NCBI RefSeq assembly: GCF_037975245.1
Contig: NC_092582.1
Coordinates: 10,206,001-10,270,000, forward strand
Direction: 5' to 3'
Source: Apostichopus japonicus
Taxonomy: Eukaryota > Echinodermata > Holothuroidea > Aspidochirotida > Stichopodidae
Length of the DNA stretch: 64,000 nucleotides
How positions within the stretch are numbered: the first letter of the stretch is position 1; each line of letters begins with the position of its first letter. Shown here piece after piece: positions 4,380 through 57,604 of this stretch. The notes below the pieces were generated by a model. It made no database searches, had not been told where the DNA came from, and saw only the letters and a program-made list of their open reading frames with translations. A program made the position numbers and the translations under genes.

Positions 4380-5812
4380 GAGTCCATTCAAAGCCTTATA
4401 AGTGAAGGTGGTAAGATTTACACGTATTATGTCATTAATTTTCAATACATTCAGATCCTTGAATAGAAGGCTGGTGTGATCACGTGGTGCAGCACGTGAT
4501 ATGTGGCGGACAGCTTTCTTTTGCATTATAATAATAAATAGCTTAAGATTAGTATCACGTGTACCAGACCAAATTATCGAGCAATAAGAAAAATGTGGGA
4601 CCACTAAAGTTTGATAGGGTCTTTAATATGTGTTGTGGCAGGTAGTGTTTCAATTTCGATAATATTCCTATATTTTTTGCAAACTTTCCTGCACACTATG
4701 GAAATATGATCACCCCATGAAAGTTTATGATTAATGTGTACACCTAAGAATTTATTAGAAAATACTTCTTTGAGAATTTTACCTCCCATAAAAATATCTT
4801 TATCCCAGCTGAAATTTCGGGATGTATTAAAAACAATATAATTCGTTTTGCCAATGTTAAGCGACAGCTTATTAGAGGCAAACCAGTCGTTAAATTTATT
4901 CAATTCAGAAGACACTTTAAAATGAAATAGCTTTTCATTTCTATTTGATTCGAAAAAAATATTTGTGTCGTCGGCAAATAACGTAATGTTTGCGATCTCT
5001 GAAACGTGGCAGATGTCATTGACATATATAATAAACAGTAAAGGGCCTAGAATTGAGTCTTGTGGAACACCACATTGAATTTCTGCAAGATGAGAATGAG
5101 TGTTTTTGTAAGAGATATATTGATGCCGATTAGATACATAACTATCGATCCAGTTCAGCGTCGTTCCTCTGATGCCATAATGTTGTAATTTACTAAGTAG
5201 AATGGTATGGTAGAATGGTTAACTTTATCAGAAACTTTGGTAATGTCATTGACATAAAGGATGAAAAACAATGAACCAAGTATAGAGCCTTGTGGCCAGG
5301 GGCGTCAATCCGATTTGAAACGTGGGGGGACGTAATCGATTCGAGTATTCCGGCCGTAAGTACTATCTAAGCGGAGCGCCACCATCAGTTGGCGCGCAGC
5401 GTAGCAAGAAAATTTCAGATTTCAATACCTGCCATATCGCTGGAGATGGCACTTGCCAGGCTGAGTAGCAGCCATCTAGTTGCGTGATTTCGGGACTAAT
5501 TACAAATTCGTCACTCAGAAAATCTGCAATAAAGTTCATGCGACCTTCATTTTTAGCGGATTATTTCGTCTATTAGTGATTTGAATTTGACATGAACATT
5601 AGAACCCAGTGCAAGTTGACAAATGATGCGGCGAACTGGAACCCCAGCCCCATTTTGCCCTATGTTTCGGGATAGAATACCCCTCATTTGTTCGAACCCA
5701 TGACAACTAACAATCTGTGAATAAATTTACTTCGAAATGGGCACATAAATTATCTTGCACCAAATCGGTAAAGGAATGACCACATGGCAGATATAGGCCT
5801 ATTATCCTATAG

Positions 5813-7748: not shown

Positions 7749-8170
7749 CTACTGGAATGGCCCGAAGATGCGGCGTCTGTAATCCGAGGAACCAACGAAT
7801 TTCTCTGCTAACTCCTCAGGCTTCCACTGGGCTAGACGTTCGCGGTGAATATGGCACACCATCACATGGTTCAGCCTCTGTTGAGTCATGGTGCTCCGTA
7901 GCCTTGTCTTCAAACGCCTCAGAGCACTAAAAGATCTCTCGGCTTCCGTCGAACTGGCGGAGGAGACGAGGAGCAACCGCAAGAGAGCTTCGACTTCACC
8001 AAACATAGCCCGTACCGCTGGATTCATCGACTTGAATATTTGTCTATACCTTAACCGACGACGAATGGAACTGGCCTCGAAAGAAAGGCAGACTAAACTT
8101 AAGATTGTTGGAGAGCTCAGGGTACCAACTCACGAGATCTTGGTGGAATTCTCCATTCAGCAGCATTGAG
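7749..8170 (-). pseudogene. hAT transposase C-terminal (dimerisation) domain, broken
   Basis: The 92-residue open frame at 7749-8027 contains LLRLLLVSSASSTEAERSFS, SALRRLKTRLRSTM and RLNHVMVCHIHRE. This is the conserved hAT family C-terminal block, in which the AERSFS..LRRLKT..R..M core mediates dimerisation and completes the catalytic fold. Just upstream on the minus strand (8041-8170) a different frame continues the homology (EFHQDLVSWYPELSNNLK). The reading frame is therefore shifted and has a stop, and the N-terminal catalytic part is gone. It lies inside the hAT at 5297-8334. Confidence 0.85.
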
Positions 8171-8492: not shown

Positions 8493-9437
8493 CCTAGGTT
8501 CTCAACCTTTTTCTATCCAGGGACCCCTTGAGATAAACTGAAATTTTTGGAGGACCCCCGGACAGTGACCGACGACCTGGGGAGGGGTATAAGGGGAGGG
8601 GTGTTCCCCTCCCCTTTTGATTTTTTTTTTCAATATTTGAGGGTTAGATGCGAAATGGTGCATTATTTTGTGACTTTTGAAGTAAATTTATGTTCAAGAA
8701 TTTGTTTAGAAATGCATTTTTCTGGGCCTGGAATGCAGTTTTCCTAGACCTGCAAGTATTGCTAGGCATAGGCCTACTTGGAAATCCTTACTTTCAAATT
8801 ATATATTCCCAATTAAATGTTAATTTGGAAGCGATGATTTGTCAGGTACAAACTGGTTGATTCTGCATGAGGTCAGGAGAAATATGGGTTTTCTTTGTCA
8901 GAGATAGCTGCAAATGGCACCGTTTTCTTTGGTGTCAAATCCAAGTTAGTTATAACTTTACCTCCACCAAAGCCTTATAACTACCGCGCTTCGCTGTGTC
9001 AACAGTGAGCAACGCATCATAGTTATTGCTCTGCATATTAGGATGTATAGTGTGCAGTTAAGTTATACACAACACTCGGGTGGCATGTTATCCATACCTC
9101 ACCGAATGTATACCTTAATGAGAAACTATATTACTTGTTTTCATCGGGGAACGCACGATTCAACATTTATCGACTACTGACGATACGGTCTGATCATCAG
9201 GGTCCGACGTATTGACGGCTAGCCTAGCCTAGATTTCTAGAGGCATACATACTTCTTCCTTCGACTATATCTCTCATTCCATTTTTCACGAACCTCTTCG
9301 GCTTTCGCGGACCCTTATTTTTTTCACGGACCCTTATTTCTTCACGGACCCCCTGCGGACCCCTTTGCCCTCACGGACCCCCAAATAAATTTCACGGACC
9401 CCCTAGGGGTCCGCGGACCCCAGGTTGAGTATCCTGG
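8493..9437. mobile_element. Non-autonomous hAT element, TSD gtctattg
   Basis: The left end is CCTAGGTTCTCAACC and the right end GGTTGAGTATCCTGG, imperfect inverted repeats. They are flanked by a perfect 8-bp duplication gtctattg (8485-8492 and 9438-9445). It is inserted in the LINE; excision rejoins the FDTIDP..ILL region. The interior near 9330-9420 is a run of short GGACCC-type repeats (acggacccc motifs). A related interior (GATGCGAAATGGTGCA) recurs at 36848. Confidence 0.88.
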
Positions 9438-11813
9438 GTCTATTGTGTCAAAGGCCTTTGAGAGGTCCAGGAAAACCCCGACACATGTACTATTCTTGTC
9501 AAGATTACTATATAAAATGTCAATAGCATCAGCTAGTGCTAGCTCAGTGGAGTGTTCAGGACGGAATCCATACTGTTCGTGGCATAAAATGATATATTTT
9601 AAAATAAAGTTAAAAATACCATTATACATAAGCCTTTTAACTATTTTGGAAAAACATGATAAAAGTGATATAGGTCGATAATTTTCAAAGTTTTCTGAAT
9701 CCCCTTTCTTAAAGACAGGGATGACCTTGGCAAACTTAAGCATATCAGGAAATATACCAGTAATTAAACGACAAATTACAATTGTGGGTTAATGGTTTGG
9801 TAATAAATGGGAAAACTTGCCTAACAATACCAGGCTTAAAATCATCGTATCCAGCTGCCTTATTGGGTTTCATGCAAGAGGTGACTGTTTTTAACAACTC
9901 CGCCTCACTGACAGGATGAGAAAACATGGAATGAGTGTTAACATCAATGTTCACAGATTCCTGTGATTTACGCGGTTGTGGTTGATTTTATTGCCAGTGA
10001 TGGCCCCAGATTGACGAAAAGGTTATTAAATTTATCAGCAATGTCATGGTCGGTGTTAATCTCTTTGTCACCATCCTTGAAAGAAGAAGGATACGATGAT
10101 TGTTTACGACCATTATGGAGAATTTGGTTAATGGTATCCCAGGTGCCTTTGGGTTATTCCTTGCATGTTGTTGAAATTTAATTTTCTAGAAAATTTGATT
10201 ACATGATTTAACTAATTACAATATTGAGAATATATAGTTTTATTTACATCAGACGGGTTCTTTATATGTCTTTTAAATAGCTTATCTTTTCTTTTAATAG
10301 AAACAAGAATACCTTTAGTAATCCAAGGGTTCCTTTTGCTTCGTCTATTTCTGGCATTTACACGATATATACTTGGGAAAGCATTCATTGTATACATGGT
10401 TAACAGAATTAAAGAAATTACGATAGGCAACGTTTGAGTCATTTTGCATAAGCACATTTTCCCAGTGAATGTCCTGAATTTTGGAAACGAAATTCTCAAT
10501 ATTAGAATTGGTGTAATTTCGTACGTAGGCTGTGGTTCTTTGAGGATGAGTGTTGGTATAGGTTTGCAAAAATATAGGATAATGATCGCTTAAGTCAGTG
10601 GCAAATATACCTGTAAGTAGTCTGCAATCGTCATTAGTTTAAAAAAAAATTATCGATTAGAGATGTAGAAGTACTGCTTACACGGGTTGGCTTAATAATA
10701 GTGGGATAAAATTCGTTTGTGTATAAAACATTGAGAAATTTAGCTGATTTAGAATCATCAAACAAATCGATATTATAGTCGCCCATTAAGTACGTAGTGG
10801 AACGGCTGTTAGAAGTTATGGTTAGCATATCGTTCATATGTGAAATTTATCTATCCAATGAGCTGTTGGGAGGTCTATAGACTACGCCAACAATGTATTT
10901 TTTTCTTAGGTGGCTGATTTCTACTTCAATGAATAAAGACTCAATAGAGTCATTGAACACAGAAATATCATCCCTGTGTTTAAAACTAATATTATTGTTA
11001 ATAAATAGACATACACCGCCGCCTCTTTTGGAGGGCCGATGCTTTTCAATAAGGGTATAGTTATCAATGTGGAATAAATGGGGTTGTGTTTGATACAACT
11101 CTGAATATTACTGTAACGAATTCTGATCCATTTCTGAAAGTTGGGACCGAAGCCTATCCTATTAATTACTTTATAAAGGTACTTAATGTTCGACTCGGTC
11201 GACTTTGAGGGCATTGCAATGCCTTTCCCGTTATTGATGTTTAAATAATCAATATTTTTTTGTTTTTTCATCATTCTTACATTTTCAGTTATGTCTCTAC
11301 CCGGAAAACAATCTGGTCTTCAGAAATTAAAGATTGAGACGCCGCAAATCACCTTTCTTTGGAATGAGAGTTAAAACACATGTTCTCATAGAGGTACATA
11401 ATTCATCTGCATAAAATATTTCTTTTTGTAAGTTTCTCAAAAATGTCCATAAAATCGAACGAAAGGGTTTAAAAGAACAGCGGTGTCAAGCCATCCAGTC
11501 CTGGACTCTTGTTTGGCTCCATAGAAAAAAGGGCGTACTTCATCTCTTCCACGGTTATTTCGTTTTCTCAAAAATTTGCGTCCTTTGGTGAAAGATTTCT
11601 TGATATTTCGTTTAAAAGAAGTTGGAGACAGCTTTAGTCTGTTTTCTCCAATTTGTTTAATTTAGAATAAAAATTAATTTGTTCCGAAATAACTTCGTTG
11701 GGATTTTTAATAATATGGCATGTTTCGGTTAAGAGAGTTTTTATGCCTTTCTTCTTCTGTCGGCTTTTCTCCAGATTGAAAAGAAATTAGCGGATTTCTC
11801 GCCCTCTTCACAC

Positions 11814-23300: not shown

Positions 23301-26300
23301 CAGTTCGGAACAAAGAGATATAAGATTACAAAACCAGGATCTGAATGAAGTAGAACAAGAACAGACAGAAGGCTTGGCAAGGAAAGAAATGAGACAAGCA
23401 AGTGAAGAAATAGACCTCCTATACAATGAGAAATCCCACCTACATATGAAGCATACCCCTAAACCACCAAGGCCAAGATCTTCCAAACCAAATAGTCGAA
23501 ATCGACAAATTTCCAAAGTTGAGCTGGACTATGGTGAGGAAAGTGTGGCAGCGAGTGAAAAGTCATTAGAGAAGGGATCAAAGTCATCAAACAGCGGAGA
23601 AGTCGAAACGATGATGTCACGAATGATGATAGAAGATGGTCAAGATGGACCACCGGCAGATGATACAACCGTCAGTCCATCCGAGACAAATAACAACATT
23701 TCAGATTACGGCAAGAGAACATTCCAAATGTCCTCTTCATCCTTCAACAGGCATTTCAATGATCTTGGAAAGAGAAATGGTAGTAACTTGGAGACAAAAC
23801 TAACGACAAAGACTGTGGAATTCAGTCCAGATGGCGTCAAAGAAAATGTAACCGTTTCAGTTTTGAAAAACTTCCCCGAACAGAATAAAATGGCTTCCAA
23901 AGGTTTCTCTTCTAACAGAAGCACAAAGCTAGGATTGCAAAAGAACCGCATGAAGGGGGAGAGGTCTGATTCTTCGACTGGTAGTACATCGGTTGCTCTG
24001 GCCCCGAGTGACGAATTAGACTCACAGAGGAAAACTCACAGTGCTATTATTCGTCCCATGATGATAAAATCAATTAAGGTAGGTCGACTCATCTCTGAGA
24101 CAGGAGGATGGTTGCCCTTTTGTTTTTATCTAGTAAGTAGTGTCCAATTCAGGGGACACAATCCATGTGGTGCACAATTTTTTAATTGTTTTTTTCATCA
24201 TTTTCTTTATCCTGCTTTTAATCCCTTTAAATCCTTTATGCAGATTTTTAATTAATTGATAAAAATGGAATCAGAGTTTCCATTTTGTATTACATAAATA
24301 TGGCCATTTTTTCTTTCTTTTTCCTGTTTTCTTTTTTAGCATGGAAATTTCTAATTTCTTTTTTTGTTCCCTTTTTGTGATGAATTCTTTTAATTCTCTC
24401 AGATATCAGAAAGGCCTCTGTCCAGGCCTGGTTCCCGCATGAGTCATCGAGAGAATGAATTTCCCTGTAGTGAAGGAGAAGAAGTAAACCGATCACCTGG
24501 AAGAGGAGAAATGGTGAAGGTATAGTATTACATATTTCATTTATTTGCTCACTTCCACCACAAAGATTTCATACAGAGGTATAGTTGATTTAAATTGTGA
24601 AAAAAGATTACAATATAGTTTTGAAAAGGAAGTGTTCTACGCTGTCTTACGATTTAAACAAAGTAGAAAAAACTCATGCAATGAAAAACAAGGAAAGGAT
24701 ACGATATTAACAAATTTGGAAACAAAGACAAGCGCTTCTTCACTTTAGCTAACCTGTTTGATACATGTATACCGGGGGTAACCAAAATCGGGTGTGAAGC
24801 AGGTGGGTTGAGAAAAATCTTTCTTTGCAACATAGAAAAACCAAAACCTGTTGGTAAAAGTGACTACATAGCTTTTCGCATATTGCTCAGCATTGCTACA
24901 AATTGTCCTCAATGCTTTTTAATGATCACCACTCCCTGTAATAGAGAATTCTTTTCCATCATATTCAAAGCTTGAGCAAACCTTGTGTTCCAAATGTTGT
25001 TCACAGTCACATGCCTGAAGTTAAGTAAGTCAGTCTTTCATTGAATGGCTAATTCATTTAATTATGGTGCCTTTAAAATTCCACCTTAAATTACAGCAAT
25101 ATATTCTACTATATTCAAAACTTATTTTGGCCTATATTTCCCTCTCTTCACCCCCCCCCCCCTCACACACACACACACACACACTTCTGCAACTCCCACC
25201 CTGTCCTACTCCCTACAATTCCATCTGCATGACAGGGTTGTATGTATGTCAATATTTTTAGAAATTAAAGAAACATATTTGTATATTTATTTGTTTCATC
25301 ACAATTTACAGTGTGACGGGAAGTCTCCTATAAAGCCTGTAAGGCTTAACAAAGTAGGAGACTCCCCAAAAAGAAAAAAGAAAGAAAAACTTAAGAATAG
25401 AAAAAGAAAAGTTAATTGTAGCATCTACAATGATGAAATAATCGAATTGACTCTACTTGAAATTAATAATGCTAATAAGCAATCCTAACAATCTTTATAA
25501 TGATCTTAATCGCAAACACACACAAGAATAAATCCATCAATAGTGAGAAATAATTACAGTTTGGAGATTCCCTTTGAATACAGAGTAAGAAGGCTTATTC
25601 TTAACATTATCCTGGAGATTATTCCACGTTTTTATAGCACGAATACGAGGGTTAAAAGAACTTAAAGTACTTCGTTGGGATAAAACATGGGCGTTATTAC
25701 AATGGCGTGTTTGATGGTTGTGGATTAGTCTATTACTATATATAAAATCTTTAAAAGCCTCGGGTAGCAATCCATTCCATGCTTTATATGCAAATGTTGC
25801 AAGCTGGACTCTTATAATATCATTAGTTTTAATAAATTTAATCTTTTGTATAATGGGCTAGTATGATCACGTGGTGCAGCATGTGATATATGGCGGATAG
25901 CTCTCTTCTGGAGGACACATAGGTGATTAAGATTTGTAGAATAGGTTCCTGACCAAATAGTCGTGCAATAAGTTAATTGGGGTAAAATCAGAGTTATATA
26001 GAGTGTTCTGAGTATATTTGGAGGTAAATAATGTTTTAATTTGCATATAATACCAGTATTTCTAGCCACTCTGTTACAGACTGCTGATATGTGATCACGC
26101 CACGAAAGTTTATTGTCTATGTGTACACCCAAGAACTTAGTAGTGTTAACCCGATTAATAATTTTATCATTCATGGTAATATTGTGATCCCATCTGAATG
26201 AGTGACTAGCATTAAACACCATATAATTAGTTTTTTCTATGTTAAGAGATAATTTGTTTGCTGCAAACCAGCTGGAAAATTTAGTTAGTTCAGTAGAAAC

Positions 26301-29300
26301 AGTTTTATGTGATGAGAGTAGATTTTGGGAATCGAAGAAAATATTTGTGTCGTCGGCAAATAATATTGTTTTAGCAATATCGGAGACATTAACGATATCA
26401 TTGACATAAATTATAAATAGTAATGGACCTAGTATAGAACCCTGAGGAACTCCGCAAACGATTTTAGCAAGTTCAGATTTCGAATTTTTATATAAAGTGT
26501 ACTGGTATCTATTTGAAAGATAACTATCTAGCCAATTTAGGGTTGTTCCTCTGATACCATAAAAAAATAATTTACTTAGTAATATTTTGTGATCGATGGT
26601 GTCAAAAGCTTTGGATAGGTCGAGAAATACGCCTACACAGGTATTATTCTTATCAAGACTATTATAAATATTGTTGACTGCATCTGCTAAAGCTAATTCT
26701 GTAGAATGGTCAGGACGAAATCCGTACTGCTCGTTATTAAGAACATTATAGAAAACTGTATATACGATTAAACATTAATCGTTCAATGATTTTTGAAAAC
26801 ACTGACAATAAAGATATAGGGCGGTAATTCTCAAAATGGCTGGGGTCTCCTTTTTTAAAGATTGGTTTTACCTTTGCTATTTTAAGCTTATCCGGAAAAA
26901 TGCCGGTGTTAAAAGAAATATTGCAGAGATGAGTTAAAGGCTTTACAATGTATGGGATAACTTGTTTGATAATACCTGGCTTAAAGTCATCATAGCCTGC
27001 TGCTTTGTTTGGTTTCACATTTGTGTGAGCAACTTTTAAAACTTCTTCTACTGTTACTGGAAATGTAAATATGGAATGGCATACCTTGTCATTATTATGT
27101 AAAAAATGTTCCGCTTTTAGTTTAATATTAATCTTACTAGCGAGGTTATAACCAAGATTTACAAAGTATTTGTTAAAGTACAGCGATGTCATTATCATTG
27201 CTAATTTCGCAATCATCATTTTTAAATGTTGCTGGATATGATGAGTCTTTACCGTTTTTATTGAGAATTTCATTAATTGTACTCCAAGTACTGTTTACGT
27301 TGTTTCTACTCTGCTTGAATTTATCATAAAAGTATAATCGTTTGGAATATCGTATAACATGGTTTAATTTATTACGGTACATTTTGTAAATAGACTTAGT
27401 ATGTTCAGTAGGATTCTTCAAATAACGTCTAAATAATATGTTCTTCCTTTTGATTGATTTTAAAATGCCCTTAGTGATCCAGGGATGTTTTTTAGTACGT
27501 TTCTTTTTTGGATTGAACACTTGAGTAGGAAAGCAATTATTATACGTAGTATTGAAATAATAGTAAAATGTATTATAAGCAGTATTAACATCTTGTTCGT
27601 TTAGGACATTGTCCCACGTAGTTTTCCCAATTTCAGAAGTGAAACTTTTTATATTATTATCACTGTAATTACGTGCATAGATGGGATTATTTTGTCGGCG
27701 ATTAGTCTCGAGGGCATTGACAAACACTGGAAAGTGATCAGTGATATCAGTTACAAAAATACCTGATGAAAGTTTAGAATTACTATTGGTTATATGTATG
27801 TTACATATGGTTTTATGTTTTGGTTACATATGTATTTTCTCAGCTGTGTTGTGAAGACCATTGAATATTTATATTTTGCCCAAATTTGTACATCAAGGAA
27901 ATATAAGTGAGTGCATTATTTTCACTTTTGTTACATTATTATTTACACACAAACGCAGATCAGAAACTTTTAAACTTGTCCGACTTGAGCTGAATTATTT
28001 GAAATGAGACTTGAATTAGCAAAATATATAGTACTGAACAACATAATTGTTATTAAACAAATTGCAATATGTGAAAATCATTAAACTCAATAAAAAGGGT
28101 TTTAGTTTCTCTTTTCTTTTTTGACAGAATATGATTATTATTATTCTCATTAACTCGCTATTTAAGTTCTGTCAGTCAAGAAATTGAATGCCAACTAAGA
28201 AATTAATTTGGTTATGGTTTCAATTCAACTAAAGTTGGAATTAAATTGTCAATTTTTGCTATCATTTGGCAATGGTCCTTTTTTCCTATAGACAGATGAA
28301 GGCAGAAGGAGAAATTCTCCATCTCATAGGAGAGAAAGAAACTTGAGACAGAGGCCTAAATCAGCTGTCACTCTGTCTAAGGTTAGTGAGGAATCCACCA
28401 TTTGATAGCATTGCTGTTAATGACCTTTCACAGGCTTGCTTGAGACCTAGCTACATATTAACATTTTCTGATATTCCTGCAAATGTAACATCCCATATGA
28501 AAATTGTTATAATTTTTGTTTAAAATATCATCAAATATGATTTTAATTCTTTTTTCATTTATTGAATTTAGACCCATAGATAATTCAGTACTACTTAAGA
28601 TTCACAACAAATTAAAATCAATTCATACAGGTACTGTATAAAAATCTTGCCTATAAAACATATCCAACAACTACAGGGTTAATAAACAAATGAAAACAGG
28701 TACTGGTAACGGTGATGAGAGATTTCAAGTTCGTGATGGTATTATTCTCTTCGACAGTATCGCAACCAGAAAGATGAACAGAGAATGTCACCAACTACGA
28801 AACTACATAGCAACAGTACCCGGACTCTTACACCTCAGACGAGAAGGTAAAAATATATCAGAAAATATGTACATGTTTCAACTTTATTTGACAAGCATAT
28901 CCCTTAATTAGTTTTTGTATAAAACTGATATGCGCTTTTGTGATTGTTTCTTTGTTATTATTTATACTTTTCAAGACTGCAACATGGTAGTTTACTAAAT
29001 AGAATATTTATCATGTTAGTTGTTCGAAATGACACAGAAACACTATCAAAATTTCTCTAATATTTTCAGTTTGCTTTTGCCCTCTCTTAATCATGAAATG
29101 GAAAGGTATCTGGGTGACAAGATTGTTTTCATTTGTCAGTTTCAAAGAACATATGGTTTGGAAGAAAAATGTAAGAAAACAAATTGTAGTGACCCATCCT
29201 GCCTTCCATTTTGGACCACCATACCATGGGCCTCCACAATGAAAGAGCAATAAATCAATAAAAAATATTAAGAAGAATTTAACGATTTGCATTAATATGT

Positions 29301-41140: not shown

Positions 41141-42535
41141 TTAAAAGAGTTTTTTCCAGACCAGTACCATCCCACGCTTGAATCTTACGTTGGTAATACC
41201 GTAGAGAAATGGATTTATCGCGGAATTTAACCAAATCATATCTAAACAGATATGAAGGACAAACTCCGGTACGTTTATAACATCAGAATGGTAAAGACCA
41301 GATATGACGTAATAAGGGCACCAACAAATCACGTAGACAATAACCAATGTGGTTAGCGCCTTGACTGCCTTACGGCTTTTGTGCAGCTGAATACCCCGAT
41401 TTCTATTTACTGGGTTTTTTTTGCAGTCCCGAATCTTTTTAAAGATTTTTTCACTTGAATCGCTGTTTTCCTTGGTCGTATCTTCTTGGTCGCTAACCAC
41501 GTCTGCTCCCTGGTTATCGTATTTTGCCTCAATGAATTCCGTTTTGCTTTCTATGTCTTTCTTCGGATCTGTTTCAGCGTCTTCGTAGACAACTATGGGA
41601 TGACGGTGATCACTATTGAGAGACGTTTCCCGGCTATGTTGTTCAGTATCTGTTTTGTGCCCGACATTATTTTTCGGTGAGTCTCCTGTTCCCGTGTCAT
41701 CTCTAACTTTGTACCTATGGCCAGTCGAAGTTGGGTTAAATATCCCATTGCGTGCTCTTTGTGTCAGTTTGAAGCATACGCAACCATTTATTGTCGCCAA
41801 AAATATGAAAAATAACAGAAAATCACTGGGAACGTAAATACTGGAGTTTTTCACAGATGAGTAGACATCGTCTGAACAAAATGAAGGTGAAATATTAACA
41901 TTGGTCATGGAACTCTCGACGTTCTCAACAGTAGTTGGGTTAAGCGTCGTGAAGTTCGCCTCTTGATCGATAAATGGATCGATAAATTCTAGGTCAGGAC
42001 TAAAATGTGATGATGTATTACCTGTTAGTTCTTCAAGTACAATATCTATGTAAAACTTCGCAACTGTCGTCCCAAATGAGTAAATAACACTGAACGTCCA
42101 CACAATGGCGATAGTGATCAAGATTTTATTCTTGGTAACATTAATGGTGTACTTAATGGCGTCCCTTACGAGAAGGTACCGATCGAAACTAATCGCGATA
42201 ACAATTAAGGTGGAGACATAAATCAAAGTGGTTCCTCCAGCCAACCAAACAATGCAAGCTGTTTCACCAAGCGGCCAATTTCCTTCTTCAGTAGGGTACA
42301 AAAGCGACCAAAATGACTTTCCAAATTTGATCGTCAGAACGAAGCAACCGCCTAAAAGATCCGCTATAGCAAGATGCAAAATGAAATAATTAGATACCTT
42401 TTGTCGTATCTTTCTGTCTACATAAAACGCCGATATTACCAGCGAGTTCCCACCAATCGTTACGATAGCTAAACAACCATAGATTACTACGTATAAGATA
42501 TCGACGTCAACGCTTTCCGAGCTTTCCGATTCCAT
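41141..42535 (-). CDS. Class A GPCR, amine-receptor-like but without the amine-binding Asp
   Basis: A single-exon 464-aa receptor with seven membrane segments at about residues 14-36, 49-70, 94-116, 136-158, 235-255, 391-414 and 426-446. Class A hallmarks are present: GGNSLV (N30 = 1.50), LAIADLLGG (D59 = 2.50), C94 (3.25), DRY at 118-120, W146 (4.50), CWCPYY at 404-409 and NPFLY at 441-445. ISFDRYLLV and the long third intracellular loop (about 256-388, rich in charged residues and Ser/Thr) resemble muscarinic and histamine H3-like receptors. Residue 3.32, normally Asp in amine receptors, is Gly101, so a classical amine ligand is unlikely. Extracellular loop 2 is long (about 159-234), with four N-glycosylation sequons and Cys220 for the usual disulfide. 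There is no signal peptide. Intronless structure is common in this family. Confidence 0.92.
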   Translation of the reverse strand: MESESSESVDVDILYVVIYGCLAIVTIGGNSLVISAFYVDRKIRQKVSNYFILHLAIADLLGGCFVLTIKFGKSFWSLLYPTEEGNWPLGETACIVWLAGGTTLIYVSTLIVIAISFDRYLLVRDAIKYTINVTKNKILITIAIVWTFSVIYSFGTTVAKFYIDIVLEELTGNTSSHFSPDLEFIDPFIDQEANFTTLNPTTVENVESSMTNVNISPSFCSDDVYSSVKNSSIYVPSDFLLFFIFLATINGCVCFKLTQRARNGIFNPTSTGHRYKVRDDTGTGDSPKNNVGHKTDTEQHSRETSLNSDHRHPIVVYEDAETDPKKDIESKTEFIEAKYDNQGADVVSDQEDTTKENSDSSEKIFKKIRDCKKNPVNRNRGIQLHKSRKAVKALTTLVIVYVICWCPYYVISGLYHSDVINVPEFVLHICLDMIWLNSAINPFLYGITNVRFKRGMVLVWKKLF

Positions 42536-44918
42536 TTTAAGTTGTCAATGGTGATATGTTGGTTAAAATAAGACTACTAAACCGACAATTTAAAAACCCA
42601 AACACTTTTAAAGAGCTATTTTATGAGATAAGCGTATACAAATCACATGAAGCTGATACACATTCACATTAAGTTGTGTTTTGTTTTAGAAAACCACATA
42701 TTTAAATAACTCAAATGCTTATACAATCATTCTGTTTCTCCCTTACATGCGTGGATAACTTTGATTAACAAGCTTAACTAACAACAGACCATGCGCAGAG
42801 AGTCATCGGTAGTTTTAATAACCTGGCCAGGCTTTTATGATTAAGAAACCATTCATTAACGCTTTTAAGAGGTTTCATTTATATTTGAACAAATTTGCGT
42901 GTACGAATATCAGTCGAGATTTTCGATCCAATCTGCGAGACCGTGCTCACTTTATTGCCATTTTAGACTATAGGCGGTCGTTTTTTTTTTTAATTGTAAA
43001 TGTCAACTTTATATTGACTTAAGACGTTTTTAAGTCTTACGCATGAAGCTAGGCTACCGTATAAGGTTATAAAACACGAGAGGGCAAAAGATAATAAGTT
43101 ATTTCAGGCACTGATGTAGGGGTGTGTCCAGTTTAATTTTGAGAAAGGTAGGATGAAAGAAAACACAAACCAAATCATCATTATTGGTCTATTTGATAGA
43201 GATAACTGTCATGAACAACTTCACAACTTTAAACAAAAACGTTATTTCCATTTGGACGATTCACAGATTTAATAATGTCTTCACACACGAGGGTGAAGAC
43301 TTGCAAGTCTAAATATGACATCATCGAGCCACTGTTGCTTTACGTTTATATATCGGGGTTTTTTCTATAATGGAAATGAGTTTTTATTCGTTGCTCTTTT
43401 TTATGTTTGTGAAATTTGTACTATGAGGTTTCATTGAAATTCCTTTAATATAGTTATATGTTAGTAGCCTATTTGTTATATTTATTATTATAATTATTTT
43501 TTTGCAATGTTCTGCTACATGAAAATGCGAATACATTACATGGGTCATTAGCTTCACTAGTCCAGCTTTATATTATGTAATCATGAAGTTTTGTCTTTTA
43601 ATTACCGCTTAGTTTTGTGCTAACTCTATTTTGAAAAGTAACTTGACGACGAAATGTTAATGGATCGAAACGATTTCATTACCCACAGATTAAACTAAAA
43701 GTTTCGAGAAAATAATCATTTGCAAGTAGCCTACTGAAATTGATCAATTGCAAGTGTATATCTTGAGGTCAAATGCTTGAAAGGTTCGGCAAACTTAAAG
43801 CCAAGCAAAATAGCTGCTTCATTATAAAGGAGACGGCAAACCGGATCATAATAGTTAGTCTAATTGACGGTAATGCTGGGTGTGAACCTCACCCCCCCCC
43901 CCCCCTCCCGATTGCAAAAACTTTAAAATGATCAGGTTTAATGTATTTCCCATTCAGAAAAATAAAGCATCGTTTCAAAGACAAGAGGAAGACTTGAGCA
44001 AGTCTCAATATGATATCATGCATTGAGCTATTATTAATTTGTAACAGTTTGTCTTGCTTTACTGAAATGTTTAGCTTGTTTTGATATATGTTTGTTTTTA
44101 AATATGGATTGCCGATGCCCTTTCTAAATCTTGAATATATAACTATTACTTAAAAGTGGTATTATTTTCATTACCAACCCCGTCCCCGAGTACATTCACC
44201 TCCAAAACATGCTGCGCTGGAAAGCGAAGAACGGAACGTGAGGGATCAATACACCTTTATGTCCCATGCATGATACAACTTTTTAAATCATGACATCTCT
44301 CTAACTGAGCATAATGTATCGTATTTATTGACAGTTTGCTTCTTCTTTGGCTTTAGACTCAACGATTCGATGTACTTCAAGTTCTTTCATCTCGCTCTTC
44401 GTCCTGTTTTCGACCATCCAATGATTGAACCACTGCGATTTTATCACACAGCATACGCATGCGCATATGTACCACACCATGTTTACTAATGGTCTGTCCA
44501 TGACGTAACTCTGACACTGCTACGATGATAGGAACAAACAAGTGAAATCAATGCTATTTAATTATTTTCAGATTCCTTGCCTCATTGAAAATTCGAATAA
44601 CGTCAGCTTGCAGTTTTCAAGGAAATTATGAAAACAGCACGATTTCTGAACAAAAGGACAGATTTAACGAAGATATTGATAAGTGCACCCTGTTTGTTTG
44701 ATTTGAAATGCTTCAGTTTCAAACACAATGACGTCGATTAAAAGAACTACTTAGAGTTTGCTAATATGCTTCATGTTAAGTGATAACGATTTCCAAAATT
44801 GAAAAGAAAATCAATCAAAAGGCATAGACTGATGTGTTGTCTTTTATATTTTCACCCGTGGTGGGGGGGGGGCTGGAAGTTTATTCACTGTTCTGGATTT
44901 TTCAACTCATTGCGATTT

Positions 44919-50262: not shown

Positions 50263-53200
50263 AACTCGCATCAGTATGAGGAATGTACATGAGAGCACGG
50301 AAGCAATCCAGTGAATGTGGTACCGCCAGTCACTACTGTCCTTGACCAAGCATTAGTAAGCAAGGATTTTAAAGCTTCCTTAATTTGCAATACTGTGGAG
50401 GAAGAGAGACTGTAGACACAACTTAAATTATTGCCTTTCTGTGCATAAAATTCTCTTTGGCAGAAATGTCCAATCCAGTACCTCAAATCATCTTTTAGAT
50501 TTCATGTTTGAAATCCATTGCTATAACTAGCACTAGACAGCCATTTTCATGACTGTTTCATGGTTTAATCAAGAATTTATGAGGACTCAAATTGAGCACT
50601 TTGTGAGAAGGGCACGATCATATTGGCAAAAGTGGGCGTGGCATCTCAACTTTGAATAGCTGTAACAAGCACAAGGCCGAGGACTCAAATTTTGCAGACC
50701 TTTCTAACTCACTATAATGTCTACTACTGTCTGACTATTTGAGGTCATTAGAGAAAAAAATTCTGAGAGCCTACACAATATAAATATGTAAAGCATGGAT
50801 TTATTTCATGCTACCTTTTGATAGGCTTAGAGTTAGGAATATATTACATGGATCAACTTTGGTTCATTGTTGTCAATTTGTCAACAGAGGTCAAGTAGAA
50901 AAATGTGGCAATAATACACTAAAACCCTTTTGGCGTGCTTTGTGATTTTCTCATAGATCCACTCTGCCAGACGACAACCAAACTTCAAGTTCAGATAGGG
51001 TCGACTCCATCTCTGCCACTATGATCTGGGGTAAGTGTTTAGACTTGCAGTAACTTGACTTACCGGTTTTTAATTCCACAAACGAAGTCCATCCAAATGT
51101 TCATTCTGAGGTTTGGAATAAAACATTTAAAAGAGCCTGATTTTTGTGTAATTCTTCTGATTATCATGAAACCTCTCGATTGTCTGCCTCCTTTTAATGC
51201 ATGTTGCTCTTGGGTTGACAGTAAATCTTGTCAACATGAATAAATTATTCCATTTTTTAATTGTGCAATTGGTGCAAAAGAAGTTGAAACCTTGGGCTAA
51301 TTGCAACAGCTGGAAGGTGTTTTTTCTTCCTGCTGGATATGGAGCCAGTTTGGTCTATAAAATGTTTGGAATAATTTGTTTTCTAAAATAAGATATGAGG
51401 CAAGAATCATTTTATTGCAAAAACAAGCCAAACTTGATGGAAGTTGCTGACTAGATTTGATACTTTGCAAGCAGATAGTGTTTTGGACAAGAACACTTAC
51501 AGTACATGATGGAATTTCTGTGTAATACTGATATATTGATATGCCCTTGAGGGCTTCTCCCACTTTCATGGTCACTTTAACAGCATCGTAAAAATATCAG
51601 CGATATTATTATTATTATTATTATGTTAAACACACAGTCTGTACACACACACAGACAATATGGAATTCTTTTCATTCTTGGGCAGTACTAGTTTGTAGTT
51701 TGTCTGTAACAACTTGATTGCTCAGCTATTAATAACCTCACTGAAGATGTTCCGGCTTTGTTGTTTCCCCATCTCACTTTTACAACAGGGATGACGTTGC
51801 ACCCTGGAGAGGAGTGGACCAGGGAGATCCGCATCAAAGAACACCTTACCCTAGCAGCGCTAGAATGCAGACCGTGGAAATATAACGGTGAGCATCCTCA
51901 GGATTCACACGTGCAAAATAAATCATCAGTTTAATATGTCTGTCCCTGCCAGGAATCTAATAGCTCTCTGAAAAATGTGCATACTTGGCGGTCAATTATT
52001 TGGAGTCACAATTGGCATGCACACACTTATGCAAATTATTTGAACAATGTTCATGTATGCTCGCTGAACGCATCTTGCGTTGGGTTGTAGCTCTGACTTG
52101 TTGTTCACAACCAATTGGCTCTGCTTAATTATCAAGTTATTATTTATTAATTATGTCAGACCACAAATTTAGTATATAATATTCTAACTATGAGCTTTTT
52201 ATGCATAATTTCTTCAATCCTGGTACAAAATGAATTCCTCATGTAATCTGTTACCTACCTGTGCATGTACCTAGGTAATATATATTTGATGTACATACTG
52301 CCTTGATAGCTCTGGGCAATTTTAATAACCGATGCAGAACATGACACAGTCCCTTTAATTGAGATGGATGCAGTACATCTGAAATTCACAGCGTCAGTCT
52401 CTAAGGAGATACAAGTACTGATTCTTGTATCATAAAAATATGAAGATATAAATGTCTTCATTCTTGACATGGGACACCATCACAACAGCTTGGAAGACAA
52501 TAGTTGATTAACTTGGCAAAATAAAAAGGCATTGGATGCTACCAATAAAACTCAAGAAGGGTGCAGACAGACTAATATGGGATTATAGATGTCTTCATTC
52601 TTGACATGGGCCACAAACACAACAGTTTAGAAGAGGAAAGTTGATAAGCTTGGCAAATCAAAAAGGCACTGGACACATTGATGATTTGGATCTGTATATA
52701 GATATCATCAGCTTTAGATTTCACTTTTGTGAAAAGCATAGCAGCAGATTTGGTAGCAACTATACTTCAAGTGGGACTGTCATACTTTTGTGTCAGATGC
52801 ATACGTAGTGGTAATGTCATGAAATAACCCATTATAGAATGCACAGTGATATGTATATCCAATGCCATACTAGGTTGTCAAAACTACATTTACTAGATCT
52901 ATTGAAATAAATAAATTCAACAAGAGAATGCAACTTTTAGGTCCTTTGAAGGTAAACATTCTTCTAACATGGTGAAATATGTATATTTCCATCATTTAAG
53001 ATGAGCAATGACATCATTGTGATGACATTTTCATATTATGAAATCATCTAGATCATAAAGTTTTAAGGAAAACAAAAAACCGCTTATCAGTGAATAATTG
53101 TACTAGAAATCAGTACGATAGTAATTATTTCAGTGTCTGTTTACATTGTTATTTTTGTTTTTGGTCTTTTCTTTTCATATGAAGGTGAACCAAACCCAGC

Positions 53201-56200
53201 TGCGTGTTTATTGCTTAAGATTGACAATAATGATCATGTTATCTGTACATTGGAGAAAGGCTCAACACCCCAACAGAACTTAGACCTTGTCCTTCAACAG
53301 AGGGAGACTGTTACATTCACGGTAGAAGGAACAGGTCTGTGAAACCCATAATTGATCATTGCGTAAATGTTAGTACTGCTAAACTGGTGCAAAACTGTTG
53401 TACCTGGCCATCTTTAAATATCGACGATGTATTTTCTCCTTTTTCTAAAGAGTACTCCTGCTTTTAAGTGACTTTACAAAGATATTGTGGCACAGCATTT
53501 ATTGTTTGTTTACATATAACGTGTTAGTGAAAGTTGTGAGCTGTGGGAGGCATTTTCGGCCGGGAGACAAATTTTCTGGGGTCAGCATGGCTCTCAAAGC
53601 CCTCTTAATGAATGCCCACAAAATCTTACAATATCAGAGCAATGAGCATATCATTTAAATAAACATACTGTAGACTGCAACATTGAATTCCACTGCATGG
53701 TCAACCCAAATGGAAATAAACAATTGAAATATGTATATTTTTGGAGTTTAATTGTAGACAGGGCTATAAAGATATTTCAGTATAAAAGTGGACGATGCTG
53801 ATGATTGAGAACTTTCTCATCTTTCATTTCAAATCAAATTTAATATTTCTATTTTTGTCATGCAAGAAGGTACTTCCTTAAGTACTACGACTCAATGAAT
53901 CGGGTAGCCCTGTACAATAGAAGTTCAATAATTTCAATTCTCCATCTCGTGCTACATTAAATGCTACAGGACACAGCTGCATCTAACAAGCCTCTTTGAA
54001 ATTGCTGTTCAAGATGAAAGTGAAAATGAGAATCTGTTAAACTGTTGTTACTTCTGAAAGTATGATCGAAATAGGTAAGCCAAGGAAATGACCATCTTGT
54101 TTGTTCTTTAGGGATAGTGTACATCACTGGCTACAGCTCGGGTGACAGTGTTAACCTATGTGAAGAAACATCAATGCTCGGTAAGTATTCCGGATTTGAT
54201 TTCAAGGAAGAAATCTGACATGGAGTGTCATCTTACTGTACTTTCTTCAAAGCAGCTGGTTGGGTTTGCAGAGTAATATCTTCTGCTATCAAATATGCTT
54301 GAATAGAAACTGCTCTGTGTGTTGGTTTGTTGTAAATAGTGATACAAGTTGTACAAGAGATATAAACATCTAAAAAACACTACTGTAACTTTCCCAAAGA
54401 AATTTCAACGTTTAGCCAAGACCACCTTGTATATCATGTAGCGAATTCGAAGATAGAATCTAGCTATCATACAGGATAATTGAAGAACACAGACTCCCAT
54501 TTTCCTGAGACAATTGACCTTCTACTTGGTTAACTGGTGACTCAATTGTAAATAGACAGTCACTCTTCACTTTTTTCAACAGTTCAAACAAACCCACTGG
54601 TGCAGCAAGAAGTTGCAGGCGATTCTTTATCAGGGTATGACGATGAACATGAAGGTATTTTACGCTTGATAACTCTGCCCCTTTAAAGGTCATCAGTGGT
54701 GCTGACAAATTTGCTAAAAATTTTCGAAATGATTTCCCTTAAACTCCTGACCCTCCATATTGCTCTCATTGAGTCAGCGATTGTTTCACAATTTTTCTAG
54801 CATATATGAATGCTATCCTTGGTGACCATTACTAGTGCTTAAATAGAACTATCTGCTGCTAAACCTTCAATACTGCTAAAATATGGTCCAACTCTCCCAT
54901 CGTGATAGCTTGTTCTATTGCTAAGATAGAAATCTCAAGTTTTTTTTCCCCTTCATTTTATTTGGATAAGAACATTACTTGTTCAATAATTTGTGATGAC
55001 ATACATGGACAATGCTGGTATTACTTTCCTTGTTTTTTTCTTTACTGGTGCAATTAGGACCCTTCTAGAATTGAAACAACCTCAATTAAAGCAGCTTTTT
55101 GCGTTTTGTTGCCGGTTTCCCACCCTTTTGACATGTCCATTGTATTTTTTACATGTATTCATCACAAAATAGTAAACTAAGATATTAGCCAAGTTTTTCT
55201 CCTGCCAAGTGCATGAATTAGCAAGTAATTAAGGACTTCTGCTGATAACGAGTAGAGTGTCTTCCGACAAATTGATCATTTAAAATTAATGGCATGCAGT
55301 TCCCCAAATCCACTAGTTTGAATACGACCAATCAGTGAATAGCTAACATGTTAAAATAGGAGCCGTTGCTTAAACGAGATTCATTCACGGCAATACCAAA
55401 CACTTGCGCCGGTCTCACAGCCATACACAATGTACACAAATAAAGCATGGTGTTGTAGTACATATAGGTGTACTGGGTTGCTTATGACGCCGGCAAAGTG
55501 AAAATGATTGTCCTCATTATTCAATGACGTTCATAAAATTTAAATGTTCATATTATGGGCGGGGTTTTTGCGATCCTAATGGACAATATCTTTGACAAAA
55601 ACAGAAGCCTGAATATTATTAAAGTCTATCAAACTGTGCATGAAATATTGTGTCCATTTTGTGTAATTTGCTCCTGGAGCATTTTTTTTAATTTGATAAA
55701 GGGCTTAACAAATGCATATTATTATCATGAAATGAAGTGCAAATACAGTAGGTGAAATATCATTGCTGATGAATAATGGGACCATGGTAAGTAATCATAG
55801 TTTAGCTCTCCTTGCAAATATCTTGCTTCAGGTTGGTCCATGTGCTTCTCAGACGTTAATGAATAACTATTTCTTGTCGTGTTGTTGAATGCCACCTTTA
55901 CAGAGCTTATTTATTTAAAATATATGAAAGTTTTGGCTCATTTTTACTTCAAACGAAATTTTCCAGTACAGTTGAGTTTGGCTTCTCAAGATATCAGAAG
56001 CAATTAAGAGCCGGCTCAGATGGTATTCTATATGGCTTTATCAAAATTTTGCAACATTATTTATATTTTCTGTTTTGGTCGATTTATCAATTACCATTTT
56101 TATTTTCCCCTTCAACAGTGTCATCTGATACGGATTATTATAGCAAAGAAGGAAATTCAAACAAGATTCAAGAGATCAAAAATGAGGTAGTTATTTCAAG

Positions 56201-57604
56201 TGACTTTCATGAAGGGGATGAGGAGGAGTGGGAGGAGGAGGAAGACCATCAGCTTGGCCATGTGCATGATATAGACAATCTGTCTCCATCCCTCAAAACT
56301 CTGAACAGTCCCCCTAAAGGAACAGATATTGAGAATGAGACAGAAATAACTCCCAGAGTGGATATCTCATCTCGTGAGAGACAAGTTTTAACTGCTTATG
56401 AAAGCGCTTCCTTGAGACTAGCTGAACACTGCCCAACTGCTGGTAATATTTCTTCAAACAGCTCTGTCAATAGAATTCCAGAAAGCTCGAGTCTTGTGTA
56501 CGGTATAAAAGATCATACGTCGATGAGTGTTGCCACGGAGACAAACTCTCAGCAAACTTTACACAAAGATGAGGATTATGAAGCATTGATAGATAATACA
56601 TTGGAAGTAAATGTTCATCCAAAACCTGACCAAAATCATCATAAGAAGAAAAAGATCACCTGGCGTAAGTATTTTTTTTTTCACTCACATCTGTTTACTT
56701 CTAATTTATTATGCCAAACTTGACAGAGCTATAAAGCTCTGAATAAAGCTGCATATTTGAAATTGTTTAATTAGTAAAGTTCTCCTGTAAGGCAAATATA
56801 GATGTTACTGTAGCTGGTTGGGCTAAACATATGTCATCTTCCATCATGCAAAAAACATGTTAGCAAGTTGTAAGTTAACAGCATGATTGACAAAGTAATT
56901 ATATATTAAACTACTCACACATGTCTTTTCATTTTTCATAACAAGCATCAGTTGTTTATATGTTTCTGAAGTACTATTACAATGCCACGTTCCCACCACT
57001 ACAGCCTACTTTTAGTAAATTAATCATTGCTGATTTTTTCATGATTTTTCACAATATAAATAAAAACTTTTGAAGCTAATTGTCAGCTTTCTGCTGCTGT
57101 AGTTTGGTAAACAAAATTTTTTCTTTTCATTTTTTTTTTTCAACAGTAGGTGAGCATATTATAAAGTCATCTCCAGCCAGCATATCTTACCCCGTCTTTG
57201 CAAAGTCATTCCAAAACAGGAGAACTTTAAAGAAAAAGGAGAAAGTACATAGTCAACATTTAAAAGATGGCAAATACAAAAGACTAATTTCATACTGTCG
57301 AGGTTTACCACATCACCAAGGAATGCATGAGAATTACCAGACAGATTTTAGACCCTTCAAATGTCAGTATTGTGGTAAATCTTTCCTGAGGAAAGCCTGC
57401 GTCAGGGTCCACGAGCGGATACACACCGGAGAGAAACCGTTCAAGTGCAGATACTGTAGTAAAACATTCAATCAGAAGGCGCACGTTCAATCACATGAGA
57501 TTGTTCACACGGGAGATAAAAATTTCAAGTGTCAATTCTGCGACAAAGCGTTTGCACATTTATCGACTGCTAGAAGGCATGAACGGATACACACAAGGGC
57601 ATAG
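50263..57604 (+). CDS. Gene 2: nucleoplasmin-like domain plus three C2H2 zinc fingers
   Basis: Eight exons with agreeing phases: 50263-50310 (ATG at 50276), 50957-51030, 51789-51887, 53185-53334, 54112-54180, 54583-54654, 56119-56664 and 57147-57604 (TAG). They give 500 aa. The first exon is the least certain; an alternative ATG at 51021 gives 467 aa. Residues about 34-127 match the FKBP/HD2-type nucleoplasmin-like fold: MIWGMTLHPGEEW, HLTLAALEC, HVICTLEKG, TPQQNLDLVL, ETVTFTVEGTG and IVYITGY. An acidic tract follows (about 198-210, EGDEEEWEEEED), then a polar disordered region with a basic HHKKKK stretch near 340. Three C2H2 fingers follow, with C421/C424/H437/H441, C449/C452/H465/H469 and C477/C480/H493/H497. 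The first linker is canonical TGEKP, the second TGDKN. The nucleoplasmin-like domain suggests a pentameric histone-binding or chaperone module, and the fingers suggest DNA targeting. No FKBP domain is present. A nuclear chromatin role is inference. Confidence 0.9.
51021..54180 (+). other. Nucleoplasmin-like (NPL) domain region of gene 2
   Basis: Exon parts 51021-51030, 51789-51887, 53185-53334 and 54112-54180 encode the whole beta-sandwich. It runs from WGMTLHPGEEW (compare the family pattern WGv.L.PGk) to GIVYITGYSSGDS (compare G.V.LTGY). Three introns, all phase 1, interrupt the domain. Confidence 0.82.
52443..52690 (+). repeat. Imperfect tandem duplication, about 137-bp period
   Basis: atgtcttcattcttgacatg occurs at about 52450 and 52587. 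Each is followed by a cacaacag, agttgat..cttggcaaa and aaaaggca-tgga block. It lies in a gene 2 intron. Confidence 0.8.
57347..57598 (+). other. Three tandem C2H2 zinc fingers of gene 2
   Basis: Each finger is C-x2-C-x12-H-x3-H. Predicted helix contact residues (-1, 2, 3, 6) are R/A/C/V, Q/A/H/S and H/S/T/R. All three lie in the last exon, preceded by a basic stretch (RRTLKKKEK). Confidence 0.93.

What the first reader, a model, noticed from the sequence alone, without database searches (positions are those of the whole stretch)
50263..57604. Animal protein joining an FKBP/HD2-type nucleoplasmin-like domain to C2H2 zinc fingers
The sequence shows a complete nucleoplasmin-like beta-sandwich (WGMTLHPGEEW ... 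TPQQNLDL ... GIVYITGY), an acidic tract and three perfect C2H2 fingers, all in one frame-consistent 8-exon gene. In animals and fungi this fold is known mainly fused to an FKBP isomerase domain. In plants, HD2 histone deacetylases have the same order: NPL fold, acidic stretch, C2H2 finger. An animal protein with that order suggests convergent or ancient assembly of a sequence-targeted histone chaperone. I am not aware of this combination being described in animals.
Basis: partly seen in the sequence, partly recalled or inferred. Interest (0 to 1): 0.82.

Follow-up and report, generated by a model that had tools for sequence, protein, structure and literature searches.

The report
Sea cucumber nucleoplasmin-like zinc-finger gene family
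A probable sea cucumber genome carries a family of genes that join a ring-forming histone-chaperone domain to DNA-binding zinc fingers, some with rows of separate finger exons behind one shared chaperone start, which could let one gene aim the same chaperone at many DNA sites.

Summary
The window has a seven-coding-exon gene (51021-57604, +, 467 aa): N-terminal nucleoplasmin-like (NPL) domain (PF17800, E 1.2e-16), acidic linker, three C2H2 fingers, all six introns phase 1. It is not a lone oddity. The same genome (671.6 Mb; inferred Apostichopus japonicus) holds at least 29 NPL heads: 17 have C2H2 fingers downstream on the same strand (12 read in DNA, 5 by match coordinates), 1 has an FKBP domain, 11 are unresolved. 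Finger places found by search lie downstream of heads, not upstream (50 vs 0 within 80 kb). On C1, four single heads are followed by about 17, 12, 11 and 5 separate finger exons. Of 28 finger ORFs read, 27 have their best acceptor in phase 1, as NPL introns require, and they look terminal. This is the genomic layout of Drosophila lola and mod(mdg4), with an NPL head instead of BTB. Best reading: an NPL-FKBP-type head gained fingers in animals, independently of plant HD2, and expanded into DNA-aimed, oligomeric chromatin proteins, several with alternative finger exons. No transcripts and no other animal genomes could be tested.

The parts
50957..51020 (+). probable 5' part of the first coding exon (untranslated, or an in-frame extension)
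   Evidence: acceptor TCTCATAG before 50957; open in frame up to the ATG at 51021; not tested by RNA
51021..51030 (+). coding exon 1, MIWG start of the NPL domain, donor GTAAGT, phase 1
   Evidence: the ATG-xxx-TGG-G|GT exon was found upstream of exon 2 in 14 of 20 loci searched
51789..51887 (+). coding exon 2, NPL first strands with pore positions His22 and Thr24
53185..53334 (+). coding exon 3, NPL core with pore Asp (QQNLDL)
   Evidence: PF17800 match at this place, E 5.4e-7 on its own
54112..54180 (+). coding exon 4, last NPL strand (GIVYITGY)
54583..54654 (+). coding exon 5, start of the linker
56119..56664 (+). coding exon 6, acidic linker; DEEEWEEEED tract at 56217-56246, basic HHKKKK at 56637-56654
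57147..57604 (+). coding exon 7, terminal finger exon with stop
   Evidence: best acceptor of its ORF, score 15.2, phase 1; best donor before the stop scores 1.9
57362..57424 (+). C2H2 finger 1
57446..57508 (+). C2H2 finger 2
57530..57592 (+). C2H2 finger 3

Best explanation
The window gene is one member of an animal gene family in which the head of an NPL-FKBP-type protein has been joined to C2H2 fingers. The NPL domain is expected to form a ring of four or five subunits that binds histones or nucleosomes; the acidic linker tethers the fingers, and the fingers place the ring on particular DNA sequences. In several family members on C1 one head is followed by a row of separate terminal finger exons that could each be spliced to the head, so one gene would make many isoforms with a common oligomerising part and different DNA specificity, as Drosophila lola does with a BTB head. 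Shown here: domain make-up, exon layout and phases, arrangement of heads and finger exons, and protein-level conservation in the pairs compared. Inferred: alternative splicing, oligomer formation, histone binding and DNA targeting.
For: NPL domain E 1.2e-16 and three fingers in one frame. Ten other heads given to Pfam, the FKBP one included, all match PF17800, E 1.6e-13 to 1.2e-22. 29 NPL heads in the union (26; 28). Exon 3 in 23 of 23 head loci read and exon 2 in 22 of 23, two of them cut by the start of the stretch, same strand and order. Of 89 merged finger places on head-bearing contigs, 51 lie within 80 kb of a head: 50 same-strand downstream, 0 upstream, 1 antisense (two of the three searches behind it used finger exons of the C1 rows as query, so the number is enriched for rows, though not for strand or side). 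In the first 20 loci, fetched before fingers were looked at, 6 have two or more fingers within 7.5 kb downstream (31 motifs; 1 upstream, 2 antisense). Acceptor phase: 27 of 28 finger ORFs in phase 1, with an acceptor profile trained only on 19 NPL exon-2 acceptors; 462 control ORFs gave 180/153/129 over the phases. Rows of finger exons with no NPL match between them; heads C1:7122834 and C1:7258557 face each other and the listed finger places change strand once between them. Best donor of any phase between last finger and stop is absent or below 4.0 in 20 of 22 finger ORFs, 4.0 and 4.5 (not phase 1) in two, against 4.0 to 13.1 for 43 NPL donors. Head exons L013/L014: dN 0.059, dS 0.719; finger exon L018/L019: dN 0.005, dS 0.101. 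lola and mod(mdg4) layout: PMC1947980 and PMC4667647 (passages).
Against: No transcript was available, so no head-to-finger splice is proven, in the window or elsewhere. The window gene has one finger exon only; no other C2H2 ORF was found in the window or to C22:10277000. 11 of 29 heads have no finger or FKBP seen yet, and 5 of the 17 with fingers rest on match coordinates. One finger place is antisense to its nearest head (C1:6110150). One of 28 finger ORFs has its best acceptor in another phase (L015, ORF 15010; a phase-1 site at 15050 scores third). Tandem duplication makes phases non-independent, and control ORFs lean slightly to phase 1 too (180 of 462). Two places in the largest row hold a stop codon inside (7146901, 7170426). 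The pore His is kept in only 12 of 20 heads and the Asp in 17 of 20. Apart from itself, the window's finger exon matches other places of this genome only in and just before its finger part (positions about 45-150 in the listed matches).
Confidence: 0.72

Rival explanations
1. The window gene is a true NPL-C2H2 fusion, but the rows of finger exons on C1 are clusters of small independent zinc-finger genes or dead exons that merely lie behind NPL genes.
For: No RNA; two places of the largest row carry an internal stop; ordinary zinc-finger clusters exist in this genome, for example C17:1.38-1.78 Mb.
Against: Gaps between neighbouring finger exons can be 0.46 to 1.1 kb (L013, L014), with no NPL match between; 27 of 28 finger ORFs have a phase-1 best acceptor; of 51 finger places near heads none is upstream on the head's strand and 1 is antisense; between tandem copies replacement differences per site are lower than silent ones in 4 of 4 pairs (0.24, 0.39, 0.45, 0.42 against 0.80, 0.85, 0.89, 0.78; computed).
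Confidence: 0.2
2. Heads and finger exons are joined mainly by trans-splicing, as in mod(mdg4), with finger exons having their own promoters.
For: mod(mdg4) uses acceptors on both strands in some insects (PMC4667647 passages); one antisense finger place near a head here.
Against: 50 of 51 finger places within 80 kb of a head are downstream on the head's strand, so ordinary cis-splicing is enough.
Confidence: 0.1
3. A shared ancestor of plants and animals already had an NPL-acidic-C2H2 protein, and this family and plant HD2 both descend from it.
For: Same order of parts; HDT1 is the best PDB match by a small margin.
Against: The NPL-FKBP head of the same genome has the same exon 2/3/4 layout and lies next to the family in the tree; fingers vary from 2 to 14 or more per exon.
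Confidence: 0.06
4. The window model is a false join: NPL exons and finger exon belong to two neighbouring genes.
For: No RNA.
Against: The same pairing recurs at 17 of 29 heads; frame and phase agree across all six introns.
Confidence: 0.04

Closest known systems
Plant HD2 / HD-tuin proteins
   Same: N-terminal NPL fold, acidic stretch, C-terminal C2H2 (PMC4414354)
   Different: Animal; 2 to 14 or more fingers per finger exon instead of one C-terminal finger; multi-gene family with rows of finger exons; NPL nearest to heads of its own genome, the NPL-FKBP one next
NPL-FKBP proteins (Drosophila FKBP39, yeast Fpr4)
   Same: NPL head with His, Ser/Thr, Asp and Tyr at the pore positions in the window protein; shared exon layout with the NPL-FKBP gene at C2:2871739
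   Different: Fingers in place of the isomerase domain; no FKBP_C match in the window protein
Drosophila lola and mod(mdg4)
   Same: One common N-terminal part and many separate C-terminal exons, mostly finger-bearing (PMC1947980, PMC4667647 passages)
   Different: NPL instead of BTB; deuterostome (inferred); several paralogous loci; splicing not yet shown
KRAB-, SCAN- or ZAD-type zinc-finger families (recalled, not searched)
   Same: Lineage-expanded C2H2 family with a common N-terminal domain
   Different: The common domain is a histone-chaperone fold

Membership tests
NPL (PF17800) | profile match over the curated cut-off along the whole domain | tested here: met
   61.7 bits against a cut-off of 23.4, positions 1-92 of 94
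NPL (PF17800) | conserved pore residues His-x-Ser, Asp, Tyr | tested here: met
   window: His, Thr in place of Ser, Asp, Tyr; across 20 heads His 12, Ser/Thr 20, Asp 17; Tyr 13 of the 14 with exon 4 joined, so weaker in several paralogues
NPL (PF17800) | oligomeric ring, histone binding | not testable with these tools
   reported for the FKBP39 NPL domain as pentamer (PMC4414354) and for full-length FKBP39 as tetramer (PMC5225439, abstract)
Plant HD2 / HD-tuin | NPL, acidic stretch, C2H2 in that order | tested here: met
Plant HD2 / HD-tuin | one C-terminal finger | tested here: not met
   three fingers
Plant HD2 / HD-tuin | NPL of the HD-tuin clade | tested here: inconclusive
   the one HD2 row joins plant FKBP43 and the window head joins heads of its own genome, but the PDB rows sit on long branches and only one HD2 row was used
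NPL-FKBP | C-terminal FKBP_C domain | tested here: not met
   no PF00254 among the 12 families matched at E up to 1; of 15 FKBP_C places in the genome only C2:2877480 lies behind one of the heads, C2:2871739
C2H2 zinc-finger proteins | C-x2-C-x12-H-x3-5-H fingers over the cut-off | tested here: met
   PF00096 39.7 bits against 25.2, three stretches
lola/mod(mdg4)-type locus | one shared head and several separate terminal exons on the same strand | tested here: met
   four C1 loci, about 17, 12, 11 and 5 finger exons; not met by the window gene, which has one finger exon
lola/mod(mdg4)-type locus | transcripts joining the head to different terminal exons | not testable with these tools
lola/mod(mdg4)-type locus | BTB head | tested here: not met
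   head is NPL; no BTB family among the matches

The most novel reading that the evidence does not exclude
Each C1 row gene makes a pool of subunits with one ring-forming NPL head and up to about 17 different finger tails. Mixed rings of four or five subunits (or stacked rings) then carry several different finger sets at once, giving a combinatorial code in which a histone-chaperone ring reads several DNA sites together and loads, removes or holds histones there.
Probability: 0.3. Interest if true: 0.93.

Novelty: new variant of a known kind. Interest (0 to 1): 0.8.

Why it matters
It would add a fourth NPL arrangement to the three listed in 2015 (PMC4414354) and place it in animals, where a histone-chaperone fold becomes the common head of an expanded zinc-finger family. 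If the finger rows are alternative exons, a deuterostome has re-invented the lola/mod(mdg4) way of making many DNA-binding isoforms with an unrelated oligomerising domain. That gives a direct test of what NPL rings do on chromatin: change the finger exon and see where histones move.

Tried and rejected
A false join of two genes was rejected because the pairing recurs at 17 of 29 heads. Finger exons as internal exons in series were judged unlikely because of the poor donors before their stops. Direct descent from a plant-like HD2 was judged unlikely but is not excluded.

Searches that gave nothing of the kind: papers on nucleoplasmin, zinc finger, domain architecture and echinoderm (0); nucleoplasmin-like, zinc finger proteins and gene family expansion (0); zinc finger, alternative last exons and sea cucumber (0); C2H2 zinc finger, echinoderm, N-terminal domain and lineage-specific expansion (one, on CTCF, listing only); nucleoplasmin-like domain, C2H2 and animals (the 2015 survey and two plant papers, listing only). 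A Holothuria glaberrima genome preprint (PMC13228809, passages) counts 167 zf-C2H2 genes and its main text has no word beginning with nucleoplasmin. No annotated animal genomes are held here, so presence in other animals is open.
Full report
What is in the window. Seven coding exons between 51021 and 57604 on the + strand join into one frame of 467 aa, all six introns in phase 1. The product starts MIWGMTLHPGEEW and carries an NPL domain over residues 2-94 (PF17800, E 1.2e-16, positions 1-92 of 94), an acidic linker and three C2H2 fingers at residues 388-464. A PDB search with the NPL part returned three sequences at E up to 10, and all three are NPL domains: plant HDT1, Drosophila FKBP39, plant FKBP43. 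Pore positions named for FKBP39 (His24, Ser26, Asp62, Tyr86; PMC4414354, Results part 1 read) correspond to His, Thr, Asp and Tyr here.

Where it comes from. The genome search places the window at C22:10206001-10270000 of an assembly of 671,581,487 bases in 35 contigs. The published Apostichopus japonicus assembly has 671.60 Mb (scaffold total 671,643,915), 23 chromosomes of 18.21-46.02 Mb and 34 scaffolds (PMC10344927, passages); the nine contigs whose length I saw run from 18.96 to 46.04 Mb. I infer that species or a close one; the totals are not identical and nothing here proves it.

A family, not a gene. PF17800 matched 26 places, and a paralogue's exon 3 as query matched 28, three of them new: 29 heads in all, a lower bound. 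I read DNA at 23 of them (window, L009-L030). Exon 3 is present in 23 of 23 and exon 2 in 22 of 23 (two cut by the start of the stretch), same strand and order. The short first exon ATG-xxx-TGG-G|GT was found in 14 of 20 loci searched and exon 4 in 17 of 23. Ten heads given to Pfam, the FKBP one included, all match PF17800. One head, C2:2871739 (L012), has an FKBP_C match 5.7 kb downstream and the same exon 2/3/4 phases. In a tree of 20 heads and three PDB rows this FKBP head lies between the PDB rows and all the other 19 heads (fork of 19: 91/91); the window head groups with L023 and L026 (94/90). Both supports are below the tool's strong mark, the root is for drawing only, and branches to the PDB rows are long.

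Fingers belong to the heads. In the first 20 loci, fetched before fingers were looked at, 6 have two or more C2H2 motifs within 7.5 kb downstream on the same strand (31 motifs in all 20), against 1 upstream and 2 antisense. Coordinates from three genome searches (143 places on the nine head-bearing contigs, merged to 89; places on other contigs left out; only the best 150 candidates scored in each, the list cut short) put 50 places downstream on the head's strand within 80 kb, none upstream and one antisense. Searches used finger exons of the C1 rows as query, so the 50 are enriched for those rows; the queries do not favour a strand or a side. Combining coordinates (13 heads) and sequence (4 more: C6:3021013, C1:19678983, C1:17097152 and the window), 17 of 29 heads have fingers: 12 read in DNA and 5 by match coordinates only (C11:3458244, C1:7258557, C1:10039698, C1:8560011, C4:7595484; for C1:7258557 three far exons were read in L036). 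One has FKBP. Eleven are unresolved, 8 of these read only over about 7.5 kb downstream and 3 not read. A later search added finger places C11:3448112 (10 kb behind head C11:3458244) and C1:7164588.

Rows of terminal finger exons. Behind head C1:1138681 five finger exons were read, with 3, 3, 4, 4 and 4 fingers. Behind C1:6902114 there are 11 finger places (3 read), behind C1:7122834 17 (15, one read at about 7136.5 kb, one; 7 read in all; two of the others hold an internal stop), and behind C1:7258557 12 (11, one more read in L036; 3 read). The last two heads face each other and the listed finger places change strand once between them. No further NPL head was found inside these rows; one antisense fragment and one very weak sense match resembling NPL exon 3 were seen in L014. 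Among the finger exons read, most row exons find their best match in the same row, or, for the 6902114 and 7122834 rows, in each other; exceptions are L014_16195 and L015_21238. This points to tandem exon duplication and to a copy of a whole head-plus-row unit. The window gene has no such row: no other C2H2 ORF was found in the window or 7 kb beyond it.

Splice logic. An acceptor profile was trained on 19 NPL exon-2 acceptors only and applied to every ORF with two or more fingers. The best acceptor is in phase 1 for 21 of 22, 3 of 3 in L036 and 3 of 3 in L037: 27 of 28. Control ORFs without fingers gave 180, 153 and 129 over the three phases, 180 being phase 1, n = 462. The binomial figure of 2.5e-12 overstates the case because tandem copies share phase by descent and the control leans slightly to phase 1. 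Between the last finger and the stop the best donor of any phase is absent or below 4.0 in 20 of 22 ORFs and 4.0 and 4.5 (not phase 1) in two, while 43 NPL donors, chosen as the best consensus match, score 4.0 to 13.1; one of the 22 (L030) is cut by the end of the stretch. So each finger ORF looks like a terminal exon waiting for a phase-1 donor, which is what NPL exons offer.

Selection. Head exons of L013 and L014: dN 0.059, dS 0.719; finger exon of L018 and L019: dN 0.005, dS 0.101 (15 silent, 3 replacement changes). Four tandem finger-exon pairs are near saturation at silent sites (0.78-0.89 differences per site) while replacement differences per site are 0.24 (L014_17524/18852), 0.39 (L015_15050/18574), 0.45 (L013_15444/16248) and 0.42 (L013_13937/15444). 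These exons look kept as protein; the last two pairs are too far apart to say much.

How it most likely works. NPL domains form rings (pentamer for isolated FKBP39 and Fpr4 domains, dimer of pentamers for HD2, PMC4414354; tetramer for full-length FKBP39, PMC5225439 abstract) and FKBP39 associates with histones (PMC4414354, Discussion). A ring of NPL heads with acidic tethers and fingers would be a multivalent DNA-bound chromatin protein. In the row loci, different finger exons on one head would vary the DNA site while keeping the ring, as lola varies fingers on a BTB head (PMC1947980 passages). The splicing, the ring, the histone binding and the DNA targets are inference.

Novelty. The 2015 NPL survey lists three arrangements and gives the zinc finger to plant HD-tuins. 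My paper searches listed no paper on an animal NPL-C2H2 protein; the library lacks most subscription journals, and no animal protein database was available, so database records or papers outside it may exist. I rate it a new variant of a known kind: known parts, new combination, scale and locus layout.

Noticed in passing
window 41141-42544 (-): Single-exon rhodopsin-family GPCR, ORF of 467 aa, PF00001 E 6.1e-36.
   Followed up: partly
window 25812-27823, 4604-5218, 9342-9788 (-): Pieces of LINE-like retroelements; RVT_1 E 7.3e-31 at 25812-26774; the other pieces by eye.
   Followed up: partly
window 7749-8129 (-): Probable remnant of a hAT transposase C-terminus, PF05699 E 3.3e-5.
   Followed up: partly
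L018 (C11:6257160) and L019 (C11:9538747): Near-identical NPL-C2H2 genes 3.3 Mb apart on one contig: finger exon 262 of 265 aa identical; the two longest DNA alignments are 91 and 97% identical.
   Followed up: partly
L014, about C1:7129046 (-): Antisense fragment resembling NPL exon 3 (E 1.6e-10) between the head and the finger row.
   Followed up: no
C1:6110150 (+): Only finger place found antisense to and downstream of a head (C1:6127605, -); could be an unrelated gene or a trans-spliced exon.
   Followed up: no
C17:1.38-1.78 Mb and C1:19.76-19.94 Mb: Large clusters of long-ORF C2H2 places with no NPL head within them (finger places).
   Followed up: no
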